Below are positions 4,965 to 27,939 of a stretch of DNA of 37,268 nt, piece after piece. The DNA is from a virus, in IMG/VR virus record IMGVR_UViG_3300042446_000416, positions 1-37,268 of that record; one strand, 5' to 3'. Below the pieces are notes generated by a model, which was not told the DNA's origin, searched no databases, and worked only from the letters and a program-made list of their open reading frames with translations. Positions within the stretch are counted from its first letter, which is position 1; each line of letters starts with the position of its first letter. The position numbers and the translations under genes are program-made.

Positions 4965-5846
4965 CTAAGCCGCCAGCGCTTCGCTTTCCTGGTTTTCTAC
5001 CTGGTTAGACTTCACCAGGTAATCAAGCGCCGCCTGTGCTTTACCCGCCGCGCTTAGGATAAATTTTTTGTCATTCCTGAGAGACTTTAACCAGGACTCA
5101 ATATAGGCGGCATGTCTTAAATCGCCGTCAATGCCAAAGTGAGCGCATAGCATCGCGGCGCCTAGTTCCGCTACCAATTCCTCGTAAGCGTAACCCTCCG
5201 CGCCAAACCTGGCGGGAGTCAGGCGATCAAGGCGCGACTTGTGCCCCGTCGCGTGCGTCATCTCATGCAACAGTGTCGCGTGGTAATTCGCGGCACTCTT
5301 GAATGCCGCAAGGGGAGGCATGACGATTGCATCGGTAGAGGGGCGGAAATAGGCTTCATCTCCGGCATGCGTCAATCCGCCTGCCAATGCCAGGCGATCC
5401 ACTAACGCCAGGACGTCAGGGGAGGCGTCAAAATCCGCCTTTGGAGGTTCCGGCATTTCCGGCAGGGTTAAGCCCTCGCATTGGTCCACATTGAAAACCC
5501 AATACGATTTGACGAAAGCATAAGAGGATGTTTCGCTTTCGCCGTTTTCGCCTTTGGTTTCCTTTTTATGCACGTTCCAGTAAACGACGGGCGTGCCCTT
5601 TTGCCCTGCCTTAACAGTGCCGCCCAGGGCTTGCGCCTGTTTGAATGTCACATACCAGGGAGTAGCAAAGGGTTGCATGCCAAGCCAGAAATGATTCACG
5701 CCCCTATAGATCGTGCCGCTTGCAGGGTTATAAGGCATGCCTGCGCCTGGCGCTTGTTTCAGAGTACGCCAGGGCTTCACCCAGGGCGCCGCGCCCTTTT
5801 CTAGTTCTCCAATAATGCGATCTGTGATTATTTGTGCAATATCCAT
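4965..5846 (-). CDS. ardC: ArdC-like antirestriction protein / zincin metallopeptidase
   Basis: 293 residues. The N-terminal ~125 residues match the ArdC ssDNA-binding domain style (GAAPWVKPW, YRGVNHFWL, TPWYVTFKQAQALGG, GQKGTPVVYW). The C-terminal half is the zincin-like domain with HEMTH at 194-198 (zinc ligands His194 and His198, catalytic Glu195) and a downstream YEELVAELGAAML helix offering the third ligand. ArdC of conjugative plasmids protects incoming DNA from host restriction. Phage copies are thought to act early. The start follows an AAGGGG site in the recurring leader and lies below an operator-like palindrome. Its GC-rich word usage differs from most neighbours, suggesting separate acquisition. 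Confidence 0.85.
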   Translation of the reverse strand: MDIAQIITDRIIGELEKGAAPWVKPWRTLKQAPGAGMPYNPASGTIYRGVNHFWLGMQPFATPWYVTFKQAQALGGTVKAGQKGTPVVYWNVHKKETKGENGESETSSYAFVKSYWVFNVDQCEGLTLPEMPEPPKADFDASPDVLALVDRLALAGGLTHAGDEAYFRPSTDAIVMPPLAAFKSAANYHATLLHEMTHATGHKSRLDRLTPARFGAEGYAYEELVAELGAAMLCAHFGIDGDLRHAAYIESWLKSLRNDKKFILSAAGKAQAALDYLVKSNQVENQESEALAA

Positions 5847-6292: not shown

Positions 6293-6406
6293 ATGTACAC
6301 GTTATTAAATATATTGTTGATGATCTTCACATTCACCGGCATACTGTGTTGGTTGGTGGTGTGTTTTCTTGTGTTGTATTACTGGCTTAGTCAAAGGAGA
6401 GACTGA
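6293..6406 (+). CDS. Small membrane protein (37 aa), possibly leaderless
   Basis: The 37-residue product is a hydrophobic membrane segment (NILLMIFTFTGILCWLVVCFLVLYYWL) ending in SQRRD, so N-out, C-in topology is likely by the positive-inside rule. No ribosome site precedes ATG 6293, and the -10-like TATAGT ends 6 bases before it, so a leaderless transcript is possible. The stop is immediately followed by the next start. A longer frame from 5999 exists, but its N-terminal part reads as noise. Confidence 0.55.
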   Translation: MYTLLNILLMIFTFTGILCWLVVCFLVLYYWLSQRRD

Positions 6407-6619
6407 ATGTATGAGATAAGTAAGAGTGTTCCACTACCTACAGAGAAGGTTAAGCATAACTACCCGCATGAGCAGTTACAGGTGGGGGAGAGTTTCTTGG
6501 TTCCTGGTGGAAACATGAACGTGCTGTGCAACTACAACCGGATTAAAGGTAAGCGCCTGGAGAGGAAGTTTGTTTGCAGGAAGGAAGGCGATGGGATTCG
6601 CGTATGGAGGGTGGTATGA
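6407..6619 (+). CDS. Small conserved phage protein (70 aa)
   Basis: ATG 6407 has a strong AAGGAG site. The start MYEISKSVPLP, a VGESFLVPGG segment and an ending of the type FVCR-DGIRVWRV match a small protein family frequent in tailed phages (I believe DUF7303-like). Function unknown. It is predicted to be a compact beta-rich soluble protein. Confidence 0.75.
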   Translation: MYEISKSVPLPTEKVKHNYPHEQLQVGESFLVPGGNMNVLCNYNRIKGKRLERKFVCRKEGDGIRVWRVV

Positions 6620-6789: not shown

Positions 6790-6851
6790 AATGGCTGTGG
6801 ATTCCGGCTTTGTTTTTTCTGGTCAACCTTTGGGTATGGGTGATTGAATGA
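6786..6851 (+). CDS. Membrane micropeptide (21 aa) with GTG start
   Basis: GTG 6786 overlaps the upstream stop (GTGA), and the TGA overlaps the next gene's ATG. The peptide is one hydrophobic, Trp-rich segment (WLWIPALFFLVNLWVWVI). A weak GAGG lies upstream. The double overlap and clean membrane character argue for translation, but it is tiny and may only serve coupling. Confidence 0.4.
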   Translation: MKWLWIPALFFLVNLWVWVIE

Positions 6852-7465
6852 GTCATAACCTTGAATTGCTATTTCCGACGCCGGTGGCGTTCTTTGATCT
6901 GGGGTTTGAACTGACCGAGGAAGAACGCACGTTCTTGCTAAACCAAGAGAGGCGCCCCAACGAGGGAAACCAGTCCTCTGTGGATAACTACCTGCTAGAC
7001 AAACCGGAACTGATCCGATTATCGGACCGTGTTCAGGAGTGTGTAACAGAGTATGCGACTGACGTGTGGAAGGCGGATATTCAAGCCTACGTCACCCAGT
7101 CTTGGTTGAACTGGACTAAGCCTGGGCAGTATCACCACAAGCACGCCCATCCCAATAGCCTGTACTCCGGCGTGCTGTACATCGACGTTGAGGATGACCG
7201 TGATCGGATTTCGTTCTACCAAAGCGGTTATCAGCAACTCAAGCCTAAGTACAAGGAATGGAACCGGTGGAACTCAGAGTCCTGGTGGCTGCCGGTTAAG
7301 ACCGGAAGTTTGGTGATATTCCCTTCCTGCCTAACCCACATGGTCGAAACCGTGCCAGGGGAAGTCATTGGCAAGGAGCGCGTGAGCCTTGCGTTTAACA
7401 CTTTTGCCAAACAGATTGGAGATAACCAAAGCCTAACCGAATTGATACCCAAGCACTTTTCCTAA
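6848..7465 (+). CDS. 2OG-Fe(II) oxygenase-like protein
   Basis: 205 residues. The segment around 95-112 (HHKHAHPNS then SGVLYI) followed by FYQSG, GSLVIFPSCLTH (His164) and ERVSLAFN (Arg178) matches the jelly-roll 2-oxoglutarate/Fe(II) oxygenase family common in phages (TIGR02466, 2OG-FeII_Oxy_5). The proximal His ligand is His99 or His101, His164 is the distal ligand, and Arg178 is a likely 2-oxoglutarate anchor. Such enzymes hydroxylate proteins or nucleic-acid bases; the substrate here is unknown. It lies upstream of an FkbM-type methyltransferase and terminase. Confidence 0.85.
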   Translation: MSHNLELLFPTPVAFFDLGFELTEEERTFLLNQERRPNEGNQSSVDNYLLDKPELIRLSDRVQECVTEYATDVWKADIQAYVTQSWLNWTKPGQYHHKHAHPNSLYSGVLYIDVEDDRDRISFYQSGYQQLKPKYKEWNRWNSESWWLPVKTGSLVIFPSCLTHMVETVPGEVIGKERVSLAFNTFAKQIGDNQSLTELIPKHFS

Positions 7466-7474
7466 CGGGTGCCT

Positions 7475-7759
7475 ATGACTGATGGGGGTTTGCTGGATGA
7501 AAGGCTGCGCTGTCGTGGCTGTGGCGAGGTGCATAGTCATGCCAAGATCGTAAGCCTTCCGGATGGTCGGGAGGTAGGAAACTACAGCGAAGAGCATCGG
7601 CGGTATTGGGAAGCCAACTGGGTTCTCAAGCGGTACAGAAGCAAACGGACCCGCCAGGAGTACCTGAGTCGGATTGAAGAACTAAGAGGGTTTGAGGCAA
7701 AGATGGAACTGCGGGACGAAATGCTGAGAATCTGGAATTGGAAAAAGGGGCGCAAATGA
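7475..7759 (+). CDS. Small zinc-ribbon-like protein (94 aa)
   Basis: ATG 7475 gives MTDGGLLDERLRCRGCGEVH with Cys13-x2-Cys16 and nearby His20 and His22, a candidate metal knuckle. The rest is helical and basic (KRYRSKRTRQEYLSRIEELRGFEAK). A GTG at 7469 is an alternative start. It resembles phage-encoded HNH- or zinc-finger-type accessory proteins but lacks a visible nuclease motif. No firm family. It overlaps the methyltransferase start (ATGA). Confidence 0.6.
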   Translation: MTDGGLLDERLRCRGCGEVHSHAKIVSLPDGREVGNYSEEHRRYWEANWVLKRYRSKRTRQEYLSRIEELRGFEAKMELRDEMLRIWNWKKGRK

Positions 7760-8535
7760 ACATATTGAATACTAGGCACGGGCAGATCATGGTCCGTCCT
7801 GGACCAGACCTAATCAGCAACTACCTGACCCAGGCTGGACAGTACGAGTGGGAGGTGGTCGAGATATGCCGCCTACTGGCTGGCAACTTTGACACTGGCA
7901 CGATTATTGACATAGGCGCCAACATGGGCACCGTTACGGTCCCTCTTGCCAAAGCCCTACCCAAGTACGACTTCATTGCCTACGAGCCACAAAAGCAAGT
8001 CTTCTACCAACTCTGCGGCAACGTGGCTTTGAATGATCTCTACAACGTGGACGTGAGAAACAAAGCATTGGGCAAAGACTACAAGAACTTTTGGATCGAC
8101 ATGCCCGACTACCAGACCAACGGCAACATTGGCGCCTGGTCTATGTCAGAGTTTGTGCGCGAGAACTCCACTGAAGCCAAAGCCGGTGGCAAACAGCAGT
8201 ACGTTCAGCAAGACGTACTTAACGACATTCCTTGCCCAAGCCCACTGCGGTTAATGAAGATTGACGTCGAAGGCATGGAGTTAGAGATATTGCAGGGCGC
8301 CAACTACATGCTGCAAGAACATAAGTACCCACCACTGGTTTATGAGTGCTGGTCACAGTTTGATTGGTACAAACCCGTAGCCGAAGAGTTAGACCTGTAT
8401 GTGCGCGGCATGGGCTATGAGACGCACAAGATTGGCAATACGATTGTGGCGTTAAACGAAGACAACCCGCTGAAGGTAAAAATCACACGCAACGGTGACG
8501 CCGTAGGCTTTGAGGTGGAGCGTAATGGAGTTTGA
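7756..8535 (+). CDS. FkbM-type SAM methyltransferase
   Basis: 259 residues from ATG 7756, which overlaps the upstream stop. The SAM-binding loop IDIGANMGTV sits at residues 51-60, with acidic Glu77 in FIAYEPQ and the family hallmark LMKIDVEGMELEILQG later on. These are FkbM/Methyltransf_21 features. Members O-methylate sugars or other small targets; the phage substrate is unknown. It could modify the same target as the nearby oxygenase, which is inference. Confidence 0.88.
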   Translation: MNILNTRHGQIMVRPGPDLISNYLTQAGQYEWEVVEICRLLAGNFDTGTIIDIGANMGTVTVPLAKALPKYDFIAYEPQKQVFYQLCGNVALNDLYNVDVRNKALGKDYKNFWIDMPDYQTNGNIGAWSMSEFVRENSTEAKAGGKQQYVQQDVLNDIPCPSPLRLMKIDVEGMELEILQGANYMLQEHKYPPLVYECWSQFDWYKPVAEELDLYVRGMGYETHKIGNTIVALNEDNPLKVKITRNGDAVGFEVERNGV

Positions 8536-22047: not shown

Positions 22048-23445
22048 ATGCTAAAGGTAGCAGGCGGTGGTGGCATTACAGGTGGAGTCGTTTACCAAGG
22101 AACATGGGACGCCTCTACAAACACGCCTACGCTAACTTCTGGCATTGGTACCAAGGGTTATTACTACGTCGTATCCGTACCTGGAAACACAAACCTAGAC
22201 GGCATTACAGATTGGCAGGTCGGTGACTGGGCAATCTTTAATGGCGTTGCCTGGCAGAAAGTCGATAACAGTGAGGTGGTGTACGTCAGTAACGTAGCCA
22301 CTGGCACTGGACTTACTGGTGGTCCGATCACGACTACCGGCACAATCTCGCTTGCTAACACTGCTGTAACTGCTGGCGTTTATGGTGATGCAGCAAATGT
22401 GCCCCAGGTCACAATCAATGCTCAGGGTCAGGCTACGAACGTCACAAACGTAGCCATTTCAATCTCTGTTGCTAACGTTGCTAATGCTGTACCTGATAGC
22501 AGGACAATAACTGCCGGTACAGGATTGACAGGTGGTGGCAATCTTGCTTCCAACGTAACTATCAGCATGTCCAACACCAACGTAACCATCGGCACCTATG
22601 GTGGTGGGACTAACGCTGCTGAGATTACTGTCGATCAGCAGGGTCGGATTACTTCTGCTGCAAACGTAGCGATCCCCCAGGGCACCGTTACTAACGTTGC
22701 AACCGGCACTGGATTGACCGGCGGACCAATTACAAGCAATGGGACTATCTCACTTGCCAATACCAACGTTGCGGCTGGAGTCTATGGTGACTCGGCTAAC
22801 ACGGCTCAGATCACGGTTGACGCTCAAGGGCGTATCACTTCGGCTGCTAACGTCGCTATTCCGCAAGGTACGGTTACAAACGTAGGAACTGGCACCGGCT
22901 TAACCGGCGGTCCTATTACTAGCACTGGCAACATTTCACTGGCTAATACCACTGTAAGCCCTGGTACTTATGGCGGCTCTGGTGCAGTGCCGCAGATCAT
23001 CATTGATGCTCAGGGTCGTATTACTAGCGCCTCAAACGTTGCTATTGGTGGCTCTTCTATTGTTGTCACTAACGTTGCAACCGTTACCAACGGCACTTTG
23101 ATCAGTTGGGAAAACAACGCTCCGGCAACAATTACCTGGGAAAACAATAGCCTGGCTACGATTGGCTGGACTAACAACGTTTATCTGGTGACTGCCAACA
23201 ACGCAACAATTTTGGTCAACTGCTCTGCTGAGGCTTTGTTCGTAACACTACCTGCTGCTGGTAGCGTCAGCGGTCAACAGTACAAAGTCAAGAAAATTGA
23301 CAGTGGCGCCAATGCAGTAACGATCAATACGACGTCTGCACAAAACATTGATGGTTCATCAACCTATGTGCTTTCCACACAGTATTACAGCACTACGGTA
23401 CAATCCGATGGTTCTAACTGGTGGGTAACTGCGGAAGTCGTATGA
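22048..23445 (+). CDS. Tail fibre with tandem repeats (465 aa)
   Basis: The N-terminus (about 15-80) has a YQGTWDAS carbohydrate-module-like start and a GDWAIFNGVAWQKVDNS end. Then four tandem units of about 60 residues follow, marked by GTGLTGG at each start and by Q-x-QGRITSA-NVA at each end. The C-terminal part includes three W-x-NN steps and a compact beta domain ending NWWVTAEVV. Such repeats build trimeric phage fibres. The stop overlaps the start of the next gene, coupling the fibre to the ACP/ketosynthase block. Confidence 0.8.
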   Translation: MLKVAGGGGITGGVVYQGTWDASTNTPTLTSGIGTKGYYYVVSVPGNTNLDGITDWQVGDWAIFNGVAWQKVDNSEVVYVSNVATGTGLTGGPITTTGTISLANTAVTAGVYGDAANVPQVTINAQGQATNVTNVAISISVANVANAVPDSRTITAGTGLTGGGNLASNVTISMSNTNVTIGTYGGGTNAAEITVDQQGRITSAANVAIPQGTVTNVATGTGLTGGPITSNGTISLANTNVAAGVYGDSANTAQITVDAQGRITSAANVAIPQGTVTNVGTGTGLTGGPITSTGNISLANTTVSPGTYGGSGAVPQIIIDAQGRITSASNVAIGGSSIVVTNVATVTNGTLISWENNAPATITWENNSLATIGWTNNVYLVTANNATILVNCSAEALFVTLPAAGSVSGQQYKVKKIDSGANAVTINTTSAQNIDGSSTYVLSTQYYSTTVQSDGSNWWVTAEVV

Positions 23446-23666
23446 TGGAACCACAATTCTTAATTAACATTCTTTTTGCTACCGCAGGTGCAGCATTTGG
23501 CTGGATACTCAATAGCATTTCTCGGTCCATTGTTCGGATCGAAGACCGCATTTCTGAGATGCCAATGGTCTATGTCAACCGTGACGATTACCGCGCTGAC
23601 ATAACTGAAATCAAAGCCATGCTTGGCAAAATCTTTGATCGACTGGAACAAAAGGCAGACAGATGA
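23442..23666 (+). CDS. Small membrane-anchored coiled-coil protein (74 aa)
   Basis: ATG 23442 overlaps the fibre stop (ATGA). One membrane segment (FLINILFATAGAAFGWIL), then IEDRISEM and a helix ending MLGKIFDRLEQKADR. This architecture is frequent near tail or lysis genes of podovirus-like phages. Function not established. The stop overlaps the next start. Confidence 0.7.
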   Translation: MMEPQFLINILFATAGAAFGWILNSISRSIVRIEDRISEMPMVYVNRDDYRADITEIKAMLGKIFDRLEQKADR

Positions 23667-24010
23667 GCCTTAACATGGACGCACTGGCTACCCCGATATT
23701 TGGGGAGCCTGACAGCCTCCGTGACTTTTTGTTTGAAAACGGAATCCAGCACCAGGTCTTTTCTGAGCGCCTGATCGACGCTGGTTTCTACGTTCCGCGC
23801 TACCCCATCATTGACGCCGATCCACAAGACCTGGATGACTGGCTACAAATACATCAACTTGAACACCAACGCTTTGCTACAATTCTTAACTTGAATGATC
23901 CATTTAACTTGCTAGACTTGGACTTCAACCAGGAGGATGACTTTTACGACTGGGTAAATAGCCATCTTCTCATTCATGAACAGATCGCAAGAGTGTTGGG
24001 GGTGACATGA
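23663..24010 (+). CDS. Three-repeat His-rich helical protein (115 aa)
   Basis: Three copies of the pattern D-x-x-D-W/F-L-x(3)-H-x(3)-H-x(5)-L can be seen at about residues 18-40, 57-79 and 90-113, linked by acidic segments. The first copy keeps only one His. H-x3-H helices can bind metals or pack around a ligand. The protein is strongly acidic. It overlaps the ACP gene (ATGA), so it probably belongs to the same functional set, but no family is recognised. Confidence 0.65.
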   Translation: MSLNMDALATPIFGEPDSLRDFLFENGIQHQVFSERLIDAGFYVPRYPIIDADPQDLDDWLQIHQLEHQRFATILNLNDPFNLLDLDFNQEDDFYDWVNSHLLIHEQIARVLGVT

Positions 24011-24300
24011 TTAGTGACCAGGAATTCATCAAGTTATTTAACGCAATAGCCAAAGTAGCAAAAACACCGTCAAATCCGCCGCAGCCAGCAGAATCGCTGG
24101 AGGATAACTACCCAGACCTAAACATTGACAGCCTTGACGGGTTGATCATGGGTATGTATTTGTGCGACGCCTTTGGCATACCGGAAGAGATTGGCAAGAC
24201 CATGCAGGTTCAAACTGTGGGTGACACTATGAAGTTTTGCATGGAGAACGCCACAAAGACGGAGATCAATGTCGATAACGTCATTGCAGACCTCAAATGA
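24007..24300 (+). CDS. Acyl carrier protein
   Basis: 97 residues. The central NIDSLDGLIMGMYLCDAFGI segment matches the acyl carrier protein helix II signature, with Ser42 in DSL as the expected 4'-phosphopantetheine attachment site. Helical elements and an acidic character fit an ACP; an extra N-terminal stretch and a 20-residue C-terminal tail extend it beyond the usual ~78 residues. It needs a phosphopantetheinyl transferase, which the window does not encode, so the host enzyme would have to load it. Directly coupled (ATGA) to the ketosynthase gene, its probable partner. Confidence 0.85.
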   Translation: MISDQEFIKLFNAIAKVAKTPSNPPQPAESLEDNYPDLNIDSLDGLIMGMYLCDAFGIPEEIGKTMQVQTVGDTMKFCMENATKTEINVDNVIADLK

Positions 24301-25424
24301 GCCTATTTCTTACCCATACAAGCACGGTTTGCAGCACTGAAACCGAGTTTTTTGAGGAAATAGTGCATCCACAGAGGGTGCATTGGCTGCCTAAAACCTA
24401 CGAAAAAGCCAAAACTGGGTTTACCTATGCGCCACACATACTTTCAGATATGGTCCTCCGCCCAGAAAAAATTTCATGGCTTAGGGAAAACCCTAGTATT
24501 GGTAAGACGGCATTCATCCTGGCTGGAGGCAACCAACACTTTGCTGGAATCAATGCCAGGGAGAACCAAAAGCACACCAGGCTGCACTACGTTTACAAAT
24601 TCCTGCCATTTAGCCTGACCAACGTGTACGCCGGACGGATGGCGCAGCAGATATGTGAGCCGGACTACATCACAACCGACGCCACTGCCTGCGTTTCTAG
24701 CCTCAAAGTCCTAATGGACTGCCAGATGCTTGAGCAGTATGGCTACACCAGGTTTGTGATCCTGTCGGTGGAAGACGCTGTATCCAATTCAGTCCTGGAA
24801 TTCTTTGGAGACTCAGGCGCCAGCCTTACTAAGAAGCGTGAGGATGAGGAAGGTGTGCTGCCAAGTGCCTTTGATAGCAAGAATGGCGGTTTTTATGTTG
24901 GGCAGGGCGCAGTCTTTGCGGTCCTGATGACAGAAAAGGAGGTCAATCACTATGGCTTGACCCCAAGGGCTAGGCTAATGGGTGCTTACCACTGCGCTGA
25001 AAGAGAGAAGAATGCAATAGGGCAGCGGGAGGATGGTGATGGATACTCCAATGCTATTGATGGAGCGATCTATTACTCACAGATAAATAGACGCGACATT
25101 ACTATTGTTAAGAGTCATGGCACCGGAACTAAGTCTAACAATGCTTCTGAGAAAAATGGCTTGCTGCGGTCTTTAGATGAATTTATAGCGACTTCCTACA
25201 AGCAAAAAATAGGTCACACAATGGGCGCTTCGGGGTTGCTAGAAACCATACTTTTGCTTGACAATTTAGCCTATGGTGTTGTACCAGGTATTCCTAACAG
25301 AACTGAAGAGGACAATGTATTCCTGTCGCAGGATTGTGAGGCACCTGATGGATTAGTGTTGAGTTTAGCGGCTGGTATGGGCAACGTTTATACGGCTGCG
25401 ATATTTGAACCAGTGAGGACATGA
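24297..25424 (+). CDS. Beta-ketoacyl-ACP synthase
   Basis: 375 residues. All catalytic elements of thiolase-fold ketosynthases are visible: nucleophile Cys132 in TTDATACVSS, His274 in SHGTGT, Lys302 and His307 in KIGHTMGASG. Spacing Cys-His (142) and His-His (33) is close to FabF. The C-terminal loop reads AAGMGN where FabF has FGFGGTN, so the usual gatekeeper Phe seems replaced by Ala359 (eye alignment). Shorter than FabF (about 412). The enzyme should extend an acyl chain carried on ACP. It is coupled to the ACP gene and sits within the tail gene block, which is unusual for a phage. Product and target unknown. Confidence 0.9.
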   Translation: MSLFLTHTSTVCSTETEFFEEIVHPQRVHWLPKTYEKAKTGFTYAPHILSDMVLRPEKISWLRENPSIGKTAFILAGGNQHFAGINARENQKHTRLHYVYKFLPFSLTNVYAGRMAQQICEPDYITTDATACVSSLKVLMDCQMLEQYGYTRFVILSVEDAVSNSVLEFFGDSGASLTKKREDEEGVLPSAFDSKNGGFYVGQGAVFAVLMTEKEVNHYGLTPRARLMGAYHCAEREKNAIGQREDGDGYSNAIDGAIYYSQINRRDITIVKSHGTGTKSNNASEKNGLLRSLDEFIATSYKQKIGHTMGASGLLETILLLDNLAYGVVPGIPNRTEEDNVFLSQDCEAPDGLVLSLAAGMGNVYTAAIFEPVRT

Positions 25425-25425
25425 T

Positions 25426-25872
25426 ATGGCACAGATGGTGGACAGCCAGCAGCAAGAACTGAGTGTAGAAGACATTATCGGCATTGCTGGTATGAACACC
25501 GATGCTGGAGTTAGCCAGGCTCAATTGATCAACATGATCAATGCTGAACTTAAAATGCCTGACACATTGTTCTTACGTCAAGGCAACACAATTTTTATCA
25601 TTCACAAGGCTGAACCGCGAGTAGGATTCTTCCGCGCACTAAACGCCGACACAGCACCGAACTTCCTGCAAAACGGAACTGAATTTATCAAAGCCTGCTA
25701 CAAGATGGGCTTTGACACGATGGCTACTGAGTTTACTGATCCTACGGTATTGAGCGTATTTAGATACATTTCTAACAATCCGCCAAACCCCAACATGGGA
25801 TACCAGGTACAGAAGACGGGTAATGGGGGCTTTTATGTAACTGTCCAGTGTGGACCAAGACGGGGAGCATAA
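25426..25872 (+). CDS. Conserved phage protein, possibly acyltransferase-like (148 aa)
   Basis: Starts one base after the ketosynthase stop. Features such as NTIFIIHKAE, FLQNGTEFIKACYKMGFDTM and the ending NMGYQVQKTGNGGFYVTVQCGP suggest a GNAT-like alpha/beta fold found in podovirus internal proteins of aquatic phages. No catalytic motif is certain. Its closeness to the ACP and ketosynthase genes makes acyl transfer possible, but similar proteins exist in phages without them (from memory). Confidence 0.6.
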   Translation: MAQMVDSQQQELSVEDIIGIAGMNTDAGVSQAQLINMINAELKMPDTLFLRQGNTIFIIHKAEPRVGFFRALNADTAPNFLQNGTEFIKACYKMGFDTMATEFTDPTVLSVFRYISNNPPNPNMGYQVQKTGNGGFYVTVQCGPRRGA

Positions 25873-25875
25873 AAG

Positions 25876-27939
25876 ATGAGTGCTGTCGTTGAATTTGTTT
25901 CCGACGTTGTTGAAGACGTAGTTGAGGCGGTAGGTGACGCTGTAGAAACGGTTGTTGAAACCGTTGAAACTACGATCAAGGCTGTTGCTGAAAACCCAGA
26001 AATACTTATTATTGCTGTCGTAGCCCCGCAGATACTACCTGCTATTGGGGTTCCAGCAATTGCGGTGCAGCCAGTAACGGCTGCTTTGATCTCTGCTTCT
26101 CAAGGAGGGGACATTGAAGATATTGGAAAGGCTGCTCTTACTGCTTACGTCGCTCCGCAAGTGGCTGGTCGAGTCGGTGGCGCGGTTGCGGCTGCGACTG
26201 AAGGCTCTGCTCTCCAGAATTCGTTAGCAAGTGCGGCTGGCTCTGCTGCTGGCGCTGCAACTGGCGCGGCTATTACTGGTGGTGACATTGGTGCTGCTGC
26301 ACTCACTGGTGCGGCTGCTGGCGCAGGCGCTTCTATTGGTCGTGAAATTGCTGCTGCTACTGAATATGGCACTACACCTTTTAGCCAACAAACTCAGGAC
26401 ATAATTAGCCAAGAAGCCAATGTAAATAGGTTTAGCGGACTTGCTGCCGACATTGGATCGGCTGTTGGTAGAGGATTGGTTACTGGTGACGTCAATCTTG
26501 AGTCGGCATTTTCTGCCGCAGCAACACGCGAATTAGGTGATCAACTGCGTGATGCGTTTGCTTCATCGCCTGGATCGCAAGAAACTCAGAAGGCAACACA
26601 AATTATTGCCGCTGAAATGGATACAAACCCTGGTTTCCAGGAGCAATTACAACTTGCTCAGATTGCCAACGGTGACGTTGCACTTTCTGTAGATCAACAA
26701 ATTGACGCACTTGCTGAAGCACTTGCACGGGATACTTTTGATGCGGCTGCTACTGGGGAGCAAGTAGCGGCGTTGCCTGCGGTGGCTTTGCCCATCGCGG
26801 TCAATGCTGCTGCCCAGGCTGCTGTACGCGCTGCACCAAACTTAACGCAACAAATTGCACGTTTTGCTGCCAACGACCCGCGCTTTGCTCAGGTCATGGT
26901 TACAAATCCTTACGTTCAGCAATTGTTGGCTGCTGCTGGATTGACTATCTCTGTGTCTCTAACTGGTGACACTACAGTTAATCCGATCATCCGTCAGAAT
27001 GAATCGCCTGCTGAGGCTGCTCGTCTTGCTCGTTATGCGGCAGAAACTCAAAAGAGTCTGCCAAAGACTAATACGCAACAAGTTACACGCCTGGAAAACA
27101 CTGCCCGTCAGTATGACTTGCAAACTCAGAAGCAAGACTTAGAAGACTTGAGCCGTCAAGGGTTTAACGTTGATCAGCAATTGCAACGGATTGAAACCCA
27201 GATTGAGGCTATTCCGACGGTTGATGTTACTCAGCCCATTGGTGACTTCCCGATGGGTGAGCCGGTGGTTGAGCCTGGTACTTTGCCGCCTAGCCGTGCG
27301 CCGGTTATTGAGCCTTACACAACTCCTGGCATAAGACCGACAAGAACTCCTAGCAGGACTCCTTCTACAAGACCAGAGGAAGAAACTGCTCCGCGCCCTG
27401 GAACGGCACCTGAGACTGCACCTGAGACTGCACCCACTACTAGCCCAGAAACGGCTCCAGAAACAGCGCCAGTTACTCAACCGCGCACTCAAACGGATCG
27501 TGTGCCTGATCGGACTACGCCCCCAAGGACTCCAACAACTCCACGCACTCCAACTGGTGCTGATGGAACACCTACTGGTCCTGATGTTGGGGTCGAAGAA
27601 GAACCAGTCAACATTGATGACTTGTTCACCGACGAGGATATTCTTGAGTTTATCCGTGAGGGGTTAGGCGAAGACTTTGTGGCTGAGACTCCTACCGACG
27701 TTGATGAAGTTACAACCGGCGGCACTGAGGGGACCACACCACCGACGATTGACATTCGTGGCGGTGGCGGGGCAACAACTCCTAGCCCGTATCGCACGTC
27801 CGTATCTAGCCGTGCAGTAGGTACTGGTCCTGGCGCCGTAACTGGTCGCAAAGAACCTATGTTTGGTGGTGATCCTGGAGCGCAAAGTGACGCATGGAAC
27901 GTCCGTTCGCTCCGCTTGAAAAAGGCGCTTGGCTTATGA
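25876..27939 (+). CDS. Large internal virion / ejection protein candidate (687 aa)
   Basis: An amphipathic valine/glutamate start (VSDVVEDVVEAVGDAVETVVETV) precedes long Ala/Gly-rich hydrophobic segments (about 30-160) with membrane-inserting character. A Thr/Pro/Ala-rich linker at about 480-580 holds tandem APET units, and the C-terminus ends LRLKKALGL. This composition and the position after the tail genes suit a DNA-ejection protein that crosses the envelope. Inferred; no motif-level match. Confidence 0.6.
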   Translation: MSAVVEFVSDVVEDVVEAVGDAVETVVETVETTIKAVAENPEILIIAVVAPQILPAIGVPAIAVQPVTAALISASQGGDIEDIGKAALTAYVAPQVAGRVGGAVAAATEGSALQNSLASAAGSAAGAATGAAITGGDIGAAALTGAAAGAGASIGREIAAATEYGTTPFSQQTQDIISQEANVNRFSGLAADIGSAVGRGLVTGDVNLESAFSAAATRELGDQLRDAFASSPGSQETQKATQIIAAEMDTNPGFQEQLQLAQIANGDVALSVDQQIDALAEALARDTFDAAATGEQVAALPAVALPIAVNAAAQAAVRAAPNLTQQIARFAANDPRFAQVMVTNPYVQQLLAAAGLTISVSLTGDTTVNPIIRQNESPAEAARLARYAAETQKSLPKTNTQQVTRLENTARQYDLQTQKQDLEDLSRQGFNVDQQLQRIETQIEAIPTVDVTQPIGDFPMGEPVVEPGTLPPSRAPVIEPYTTPGIRPTRTPSRTPSTRPEEETAPRPGTAPETAPETAPTTSPETAPETAPVTQPRTQTDRVPDRTTPPRTPTTPRTPTGADGTPTGPDVGVEEEPVNIDDLFTDEDILEFIREGLGEDFVAETPTDVDEVTTGGTEGTTPPTIDIRGGGGATTPSPYRTSVSSRAVGTGPGAVTGRKEPMFGGDPGAQSDAWNVRSLRLKKALGL

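What the first reader, a model, noticed from the sequence alone, without database searches (positions are those of the whole stretch)
24007..25424. Phage-encoded acyl carrier protein plus intact ketosynthase in the tail gene block
An ACP with the DSL attachment Ser42 and a beta-ketoacyl synthase with Cys132, His274, Lys302 and His307 are coupled by a 4-base overlap, and coupled in turn to the tail fibre through two small genes. Fatty-acid elongation enzymes are rare in phages, and here they are placed with virion genes instead of early metabolic genes. Possible roles: making a special acyl chain to modify a virion or host envelope component, altering membrane lipids before lysis, or making an acyl signal. 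Seen: motifs and overlaps. Known: ketosynthase and ACP chemistry. Inferred: the purpose.
Basis: partly seen in the sequence, partly recalled or inferred. Interest (0 to 1): 0.92.

Follow-up and report, generated by a model that had tools for sequence, protein, structure and literature searches.

The report
Phage fatty-acyl carrier and ketosynthase pair
Hundreds of environmental bacterial-virus sequences carry a matched pair of genes for building a fatty-acyl chain (its carrier protein and its chain-extending enzyme), always side by side and intact, probably to supply an acyl group to a virus-encoded transferase-like protein that sits among the virus-particle genes; the purpose is still unproven.

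Summary
ORFs 24007-24300 (ACP, 97 aa, DSL Ser42) and 24297-25424 (beta-ketoacyl synthase, 375 aa, Cys132/His274/Lys302/His307) overlap by 4 bases. The KS has a thiolase/FabF fold; the ACP matches solved ACPs by profile. It is no curiosity: scans matched over 500 IMG/VR stretches, every viral KS examined with upstream DNA has the ACP beside it (121/121 and 118/118, overlapping sets), and catalytic residues are invariant (82/82 KS, 81/81 ACP). The 'tail gene block' is only one of two contexts: in about 50 other contigs the pair sits beside a helicase-like gene, away from virion genes. A third gene recurs, 25426-25872, 148 aa, with a GNAT-acyltransferase fold lacking the usual CoA loop. It follows KS directly in 117/118 loci of the first set; in helicase-type contigs long enough to tell, it lies 15-20 kb away on the other strand (5/5). 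It also occurs without ACP-KS, once beside a decayed KS relic. I infer that ACP-KS makes a dedicated acyl-ACP that this protein transfers to a target, perhaps a virion/ejection protein (NodF-NodE-NodA or HlyC-like logic). Activity, substrate and target are not shown.

The parts
24007..24300 (+). acyl carrier protein, 97 aa, DSL attachment Ser42
24297..25424 (+). beta-ketoacyl synthase (FabF superfamily), 375 aa; Cys132, His274, Lys302, His307
25426..25872 (+). 148-aa GNAT-fold protein, candidate acyl-ACP-dependent acyltransferase; conserved H60, R70, N73, D75
   Evidence: AF2 pLDDT 91; Foldseek/VIA GNAT, Z up to 11.5; conservation
23663..24010 (+). 115-aa protein of unknown function, directly upstream of the ACP; also present in relatives that lack ACP-KS
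23421..23666 (+). 81-aa small protein (phrog_462 'lipoprotein', E 2.6e-11)
22048..23445 (+). 465-aa tail-like protein
   Evidence: phrog_31460 tail protein E 1.7e-8
25876..27939 (+). Ala-rich 687-aa protein following the GNAT-fold gene; candidate virion/ejection protein and candidate acyl target (inference from position)
   Evidence: no family hit in the window; relatives follow the GNAT-fold gene in the same order

Best explanation
The phage ACP is converted to holo-ACP by a host phosphopantetheinyl transferase, takes acyl/malonyl groups from host fatty-acid synthesis, and the phage KS elongates on it, giving a dedicated acyl- (or beta-ketoacyl-) ACP. That acyl-ACP is the donor for the GNAT-fold protein encoded by the next gene, which acylates a protein or envelope component used in virion assembly or DNA delivery; the best candidate targets are the large proteins encoded just downstream. 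Shown: real ACP and KS families, invariant catalytic residues, obligate ACP-KS pairing, GNAT fold of the third protein, its presence wherever ACP-KS occurs and the relevant region is held, and at least one loss of ACP-KS with GNAT kept. Inferred: catalysis, use of the phage acyl-ACP by the GNAT-fold protein, and the target.
For: Pairing: ACP adjacent to KS in 121/121 viral loci (the one exception, L118, is a bacterial contig) and 118/118 of a second, overlapping set. Third partner: GNAT-fold gene adjacent in 117/118; in helicase-type contigs, where ACP-KS is elsewhere, the GNAT-fold gene is on the opposite strand 15-20 kb away in 5/5 contigs long enough to hold that position, each with one KS only (positions compared by hand; some of these contigs are close relatives). 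Conversely 20 related records without an intact KS hold the GNAT-fold gene strongly in only 6 and weakly in 2: KS implies GNAT, not the reverse. In L222 the short gap before GNAT holds a decayed KS C-terminus with stops, so ACP-KS was lost there and GNAT kept. The fold lacks the Gly-rich CoA loop (NADTAPNF after strand 4), as ApxIC/HlyC-type enzymes that use acyl-ACP lack CoA-binding elements (PMC8339906). GNAT R70 is kept in 81/82 carriers and in both helicase-type GNATs read, but lost in 2 of 4 non-carrier lineages. Downstream genes of a second phage group include a 'DNA ejection protein' match (phrog_4287, E 2.2e-5) and an SLT internal-virion-type protein.
Against: In about 50 contigs ACP-KS is not with virion genes, so co-expression with virion proteins is not required. 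The GNAT-fold family is broader than ACP-KS (hhalign 97% to proteins of ACP-KS-lacking phages), so it may be a core assembly factor with no catalytic role, and 'KS implies GNAT' may partly reflect shared ancestry. GNAT-only lineages L162 and L217 keep R70. No acyltransferase family matches it by sequence. The window's own downstream proteins have no family hit, so 'ejection protein' there rests on position only.
Confidence: 0.4

Rival explanations
1. Membrane or lipid remodelling: ACP-KS feeds back into host fatty-acid synthesis (chain length, unsaturation) or diverts malonyl units, changing host membranes before assembly or lysis. The GNAT-fold gene is only a neighbour.
For: A lone KS and ACP need host FabD/FabG/FabZ/FabI to go further, and none of the window ORFs scanned matches those. 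The helicase-type placement would suit a host-takeover gene. From general knowledge, excess FabF blocks E. coli fatty-acid synthesis. Authors propose lipid roles for phage ACPs (PMC11705849, PMC8224337).
Against: A dedicated, divergent ACP is not needed just to elongate host chains; the recurrence with a GNAT-fold gene in two genome layouts is then unexplained.
Confidence: 0.3
2. Acyl signal or small molecule: the GNAT-fold protein transfers the acyl group to an amino compound, in the manner of LuxI or N-acyl amino acid synthases.
For: Acyl-ACP plus GNAT-like fold is also the chemistry of LuxI-type enzymes (established knowledge); Foldseek's top PDB hit is an NRPS acyltransferase domain (NcdE).
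Against: No receptor-like gene recognised in the window; the GNAT-fold gene is followed by the Ala-rich virion-type gene in both layouts.
Confidence: 0.1
3. Non-enzymatic role: ACP and KS act as scaffold or chaperone parts of virion assembly or of another complex.
For: Position beside virion genes in the window group; ACPs do have roles in other complexes (general knowledge).
Against: All four KS catalytic residues and the ACP serine are invariant; helicase-type placement.
Confidence: 0.08

Closest known systems
Rhizobial NodF (ACP) - NodE (KS) - NodA (N-acyltransferase)
   Same: Dedicated ACP and FabF-like KS, with an acyltransferase that attaches their product (NodA transfers from ACP; nodE needed for the polyunsaturated chains, PMC5080398; that paper swaps the NodE/NodF labels)
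   Different: Sequence membership not tested; the target there is a chitin oligomer; bacterial symbiosis genes, not phage
HlyC/RtxC/CdiC toxin-activating acyltransferases
   Same: GNAT-like fold lacking CoA-binding elements, acyl-ACP donor, target encoded by a neighbouring gene (PMC8339906, PMC8510554)
   Different: No sequence match; catalytic His/Asp correspondence not established; no ketosynthase partner there
FabF/FabB-type beta-ketoacyl-ACP synthases
   Same: Thiolase fold, Cys-His-Lys-His
   Different: 17-22% identity in structural alignments; far below the fabF equivalog cut-off; 375 aa against about 410
Phage-encoded ACP genes (Alteromonas phage R22Y, Erythrobacter phage vB_EliS-R6L) and fabG-acpP-fabF in three Rhodobacteraceae prophages
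   Same: ACP in a phage, or acpP-fabF order in a reported prophage
   Different: No ACP-KS pair reported in the passages read for the two phages; the prophage set includes fabG in the normal bacterial fab order and may be host DNA (my inference)
T7 gp13 / P22 gp14-type small proteins before the ejection genes (from memory)
   Same: Small gene before ejection proteins; BFVD hit 'Internal virion protein A', Foldseek E 1.8e-3
   Different: Homology not established; no ACP-KS known there

Membership tests
Beta-ketoacyl-ACP synthase superfamily | thiolase fold with KS-type relatives | tested here: met
   VIA Z 33-35.5 over 322-337 residues; model pLDDT 74 with low-confidence stretches 19-45 and 80-106
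Beta-ketoacyl-ACP synthase superfamily | Cys-His-His triad plus Lys | tested here: met
   C132, H274, K302, H307 in 82/82
FabF equivalog (TIGR03150) | score above curated cut-off | tested here: not met
   81.3 against 493.75 bits
Acyl carrier protein | DSL serine at the start of helix II | tested here: met
   Ser42 in 81/81
Acyl carrier protein | profile similarity to known ACPs | tested here: met
   16-row profile matches PDB ACPs at 1.1e-5; the single sequence alone is below the Pfam PP-binding gathering score, 15.1 against 20.8 bits
Acyl carrier protein | four-helix fold | not tested
Acyl carrier protein | phosphopantetheinylation by AcpS | not testable with these tools
   needs an assay
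GNAT superfamily (148-aa protein) | GNAT fold | tested here: met
   pLDDT 91; Z up to 11.5; Foldseek prob 1.00, best E 2.3e-4
CoA-using GNAT enzymes | Q/R-x-x-G-x-G/A pyrophosphate loop before helix 3 | tested here: not met
   the stretch is NADTAPNF in the window; N73, A74, D75 and N79 nearly invariant
HlyC/RtxC acyltransferases | catalytic His/Asp pair in the HlyC position | tested here: inconclusive
   H60 and D75 conserved, but positions were not superposed on ApxC
NodF-NodE-NodA | sequence homology to NodF/NodE/NodA | not tested
   analogy of gene set only
Host-derived auxiliary metabolic gene | recent host origin | tested here: inconclusive
   the one GTDB scan found an 80% hit on a 37.6-kb phage-sized contig and one 28% bacterial hit; that scan reaches close relatives only

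The most novel reading that the evidence does not exclude
A widespread phage-encoded lipidation module: a dedicated ACP and ketosynthase make a specific acyl chain that a phage GNAT-fold enzyme attaches to DNA-ejection proteins, helping them insert into or cross the host envelope.
Probability: 0.22. Interest if true: 0.92.

Novelty: new variant of a known kind. Interest (0 to 1): 0.72.

Why it matters
It shows that fatty-acyl chemistry is a standing, selected part of a large set of uncultured phages, not a one-off capture, and it gives a small three-gene set whose function can be tested directly in E. coli. If the acyl group ends up on virion proteins, it would be a new way for phages to get their DNA through cell envelopes.

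Tried and rejected
Megablast of the window against phage records: no match. Family scans of the 148-aa protein: no convincing Pfam or PHROG family. Idea that ACP-KS-GNAT is one inseparable cassette: rejected, since GNAT occurs alone and ACP-KS occurs in a helicase-type module. Idea that co-location with virion genes proves a virion function: rejected for the same reason. A GTDB scan for a host or bacterial donor gave no usable answer. Faster divergence of GNAT after ACP-KS loss (branch 0.47 for L158/L219 against a median end branch of 0.078) is suggestive only: 3-4 independent changes. No ACP structure was predicted (both jobs spent on GNAT and KS). Literature searches found no description of an ACP-KS pair in lytic phages, in an open-access library only.

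Full report
Observation. Two ORFs at 24007-24300 and 24297-25424 overlap by four bases and carry the residues named. The KS hits Pfam Ketoacyl-synt_C at 1.4e-13 and many FabF-type models, none above its curated cut-off. Its AF2 model (pLDDT 74, pTM 0.81) matches FabF, KasA and type II PKS ketosynthases at Foldseek E about 1e-19 and VIA Z 33-35.5. The ACP is weak as a single sequence, but a 16-row profile finds solved ACPs at 1.1e-5.

Conservation. C132, H274, K302 and H307 are invariant in 82/82 KS, and Ser42 in 81/81 ACP. Pairwise dN/dS for KS is 0.08-0.14. ACP lies next to KS in 121/121 viral loci with room (the only exception is a bacterial contig, L118) and in 118/118 of a later, overlapping set. 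The two genes therefore travel as a pair.

Third gene. The next ORF, 25426-25872, has no convincing family hit, but its AF2 model (pLDDT 91) has the order two helices, three strands, helix, strand, helix, two strands, and matches GNAT acyltransferases (Foldseek best E 2.3e-4, prob 1.00; VIA Z up to 11.5). The stretch between strand 4 and helix 3 reads NADTAPNF, without the Gly-rich CoA loop. HlyC-type enzymes also have a GNAT-like fold without CoA-binding elements and use acyl-ACP (PMC8339906); a homologous enzyme, CdiC, acylates a delivery protein encoded next to it (PMC8510554).

Gene order around it. Among the 80 best relatives of the 115-aa gene, 62 have at least 2.5 kb downstream: 27 have ACP-KS-GNAT, 9 GNAT alone and 26 none by BLAST; ACP and KS were never seen apart where both places are held. 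Several of the last class carry a remote homologue (L265, L267, L269, L274; hhalign 97.2%, E 3.7e-11). The phages MW202825 and MW202753, with portals 64-67% identical to the window's, lack ACP, KS and the 148-aa gene. In L222 the short gap before the GNAT-fold gene holds a decayed piece of KS (RPKIGHIKCYFGLLLTLVLLDNPVYGVVTATPVR against KQKIGHTMGASGLLETILLLDNLAYGVVPGIPNR) with stops nearby: ACP-KS was lost there and GNAT kept. A GNAT tree needs four changes of ACP-KS state, at least three forced by well-supported branches.

Second layout. A scan with the KS of L115, and then with that of L327, showed about 50 distinct contigs in which ACP-KS is not followed by the GNAT-fold gene; in 46 of them it lies beside a helicase-like gene and a ~100-aa gene. 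Eleven longer contigs were searched for the GNAT-fold family and for KS. One of them, G016, has the window-type order. Of the other ten, five (G001, G008, G010, G014, G015) have a single KS and a GNAT-fold gene 15-20 kb away on the other strand; in the remaining five (G009, G011, G012, G013, G017) the position expected from that spacing lies beyond the contig end (my comparison of coordinates). In the two of these GNATs read in full, H60, R70 and NADTA are kept. So far I have not seen a KS in a record that holds the expected region but lacks the GNAT-fold gene; short fragments such as L115 cannot tell. Twenty related records without an intact KS hold the GNAT-fold gene strongly in six and weakly in two. 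Shared ancestry may explain part of this, and some of the contigs are close relatives of one another.

Interpretation. The pair very probably makes a dedicated acyl-ACP with host help. That the GNAT-fold protein uses it is the best-supported next step. That the target is a virion or ejection protein is a weaker inference from gene order: in the second phage group the same block includes a match to a DNA ejection protein family and, in MW202545, an SLT-domain protein. The window's own proteins there have no family hit, and the morphology of both groups is not established (MW202545 is deposited as Siphoviridae). Membrane remodelling by ACP-KS alone remains a serious rival because of the second layout. 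The host is unknown.

Novelty. Phage ACP genes are known, and one paper reports fabG-acpP-fabF in three prophages. I found no description of this ACP-KS pair, its two layouts or its GNAT-fold partner, within an open-access library and with limited searches.

Noticed in passing
L222 near 6345-6490; L446: Decayed KS C-terminus with stops between the 115-aa gene and the GNAT-fold gene: a relic of a lost ACP-KS pair.
   Followed up: yes
L327, L313, L318, L319, L323, L329, L330, L365 and others: ACP-KS in a helicase / ~100-aa gene / DUF2800-like module, a second genome layout for the same pair.
   Followed up: partly
L115 5722-7115 (also L276): ACP-KS with no GNAT-fold gene held on the short contig; the SLT/ejection-like genes there are on the other strand.
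   Followed up: partly
window 7738-8535: FkbM-type methyltransferase domain (PF05050, E 2.1e-8), overlapping the start of the terminase large subunit ORF.
   Followed up: no
window 6848-7465: 2OG-Fe(II) oxygenase (PF13759, E 1.1e-18); MW202545 also has one annotated.
   Followed up: no
window 4965-5846 (-): ArdC-type antirestriction protein with zincin-like metallopeptidase domain (PF08401, PF18818).
   Followed up: no
L236, L249, L250, L255: Very large Ala-rich proteins (about 980-1125 aa) directly follow the 115-aa gene in place of the GNAT-fold and 687-aa genes.
   Followed up: no
L117 (JAGYJQ010000016.1): A 37.6-kb contig in a MAG labelled Balneolaceae carries a KS 80% identical; probably a co-binned phage contig, so no host is inferred.
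   Followed up: no
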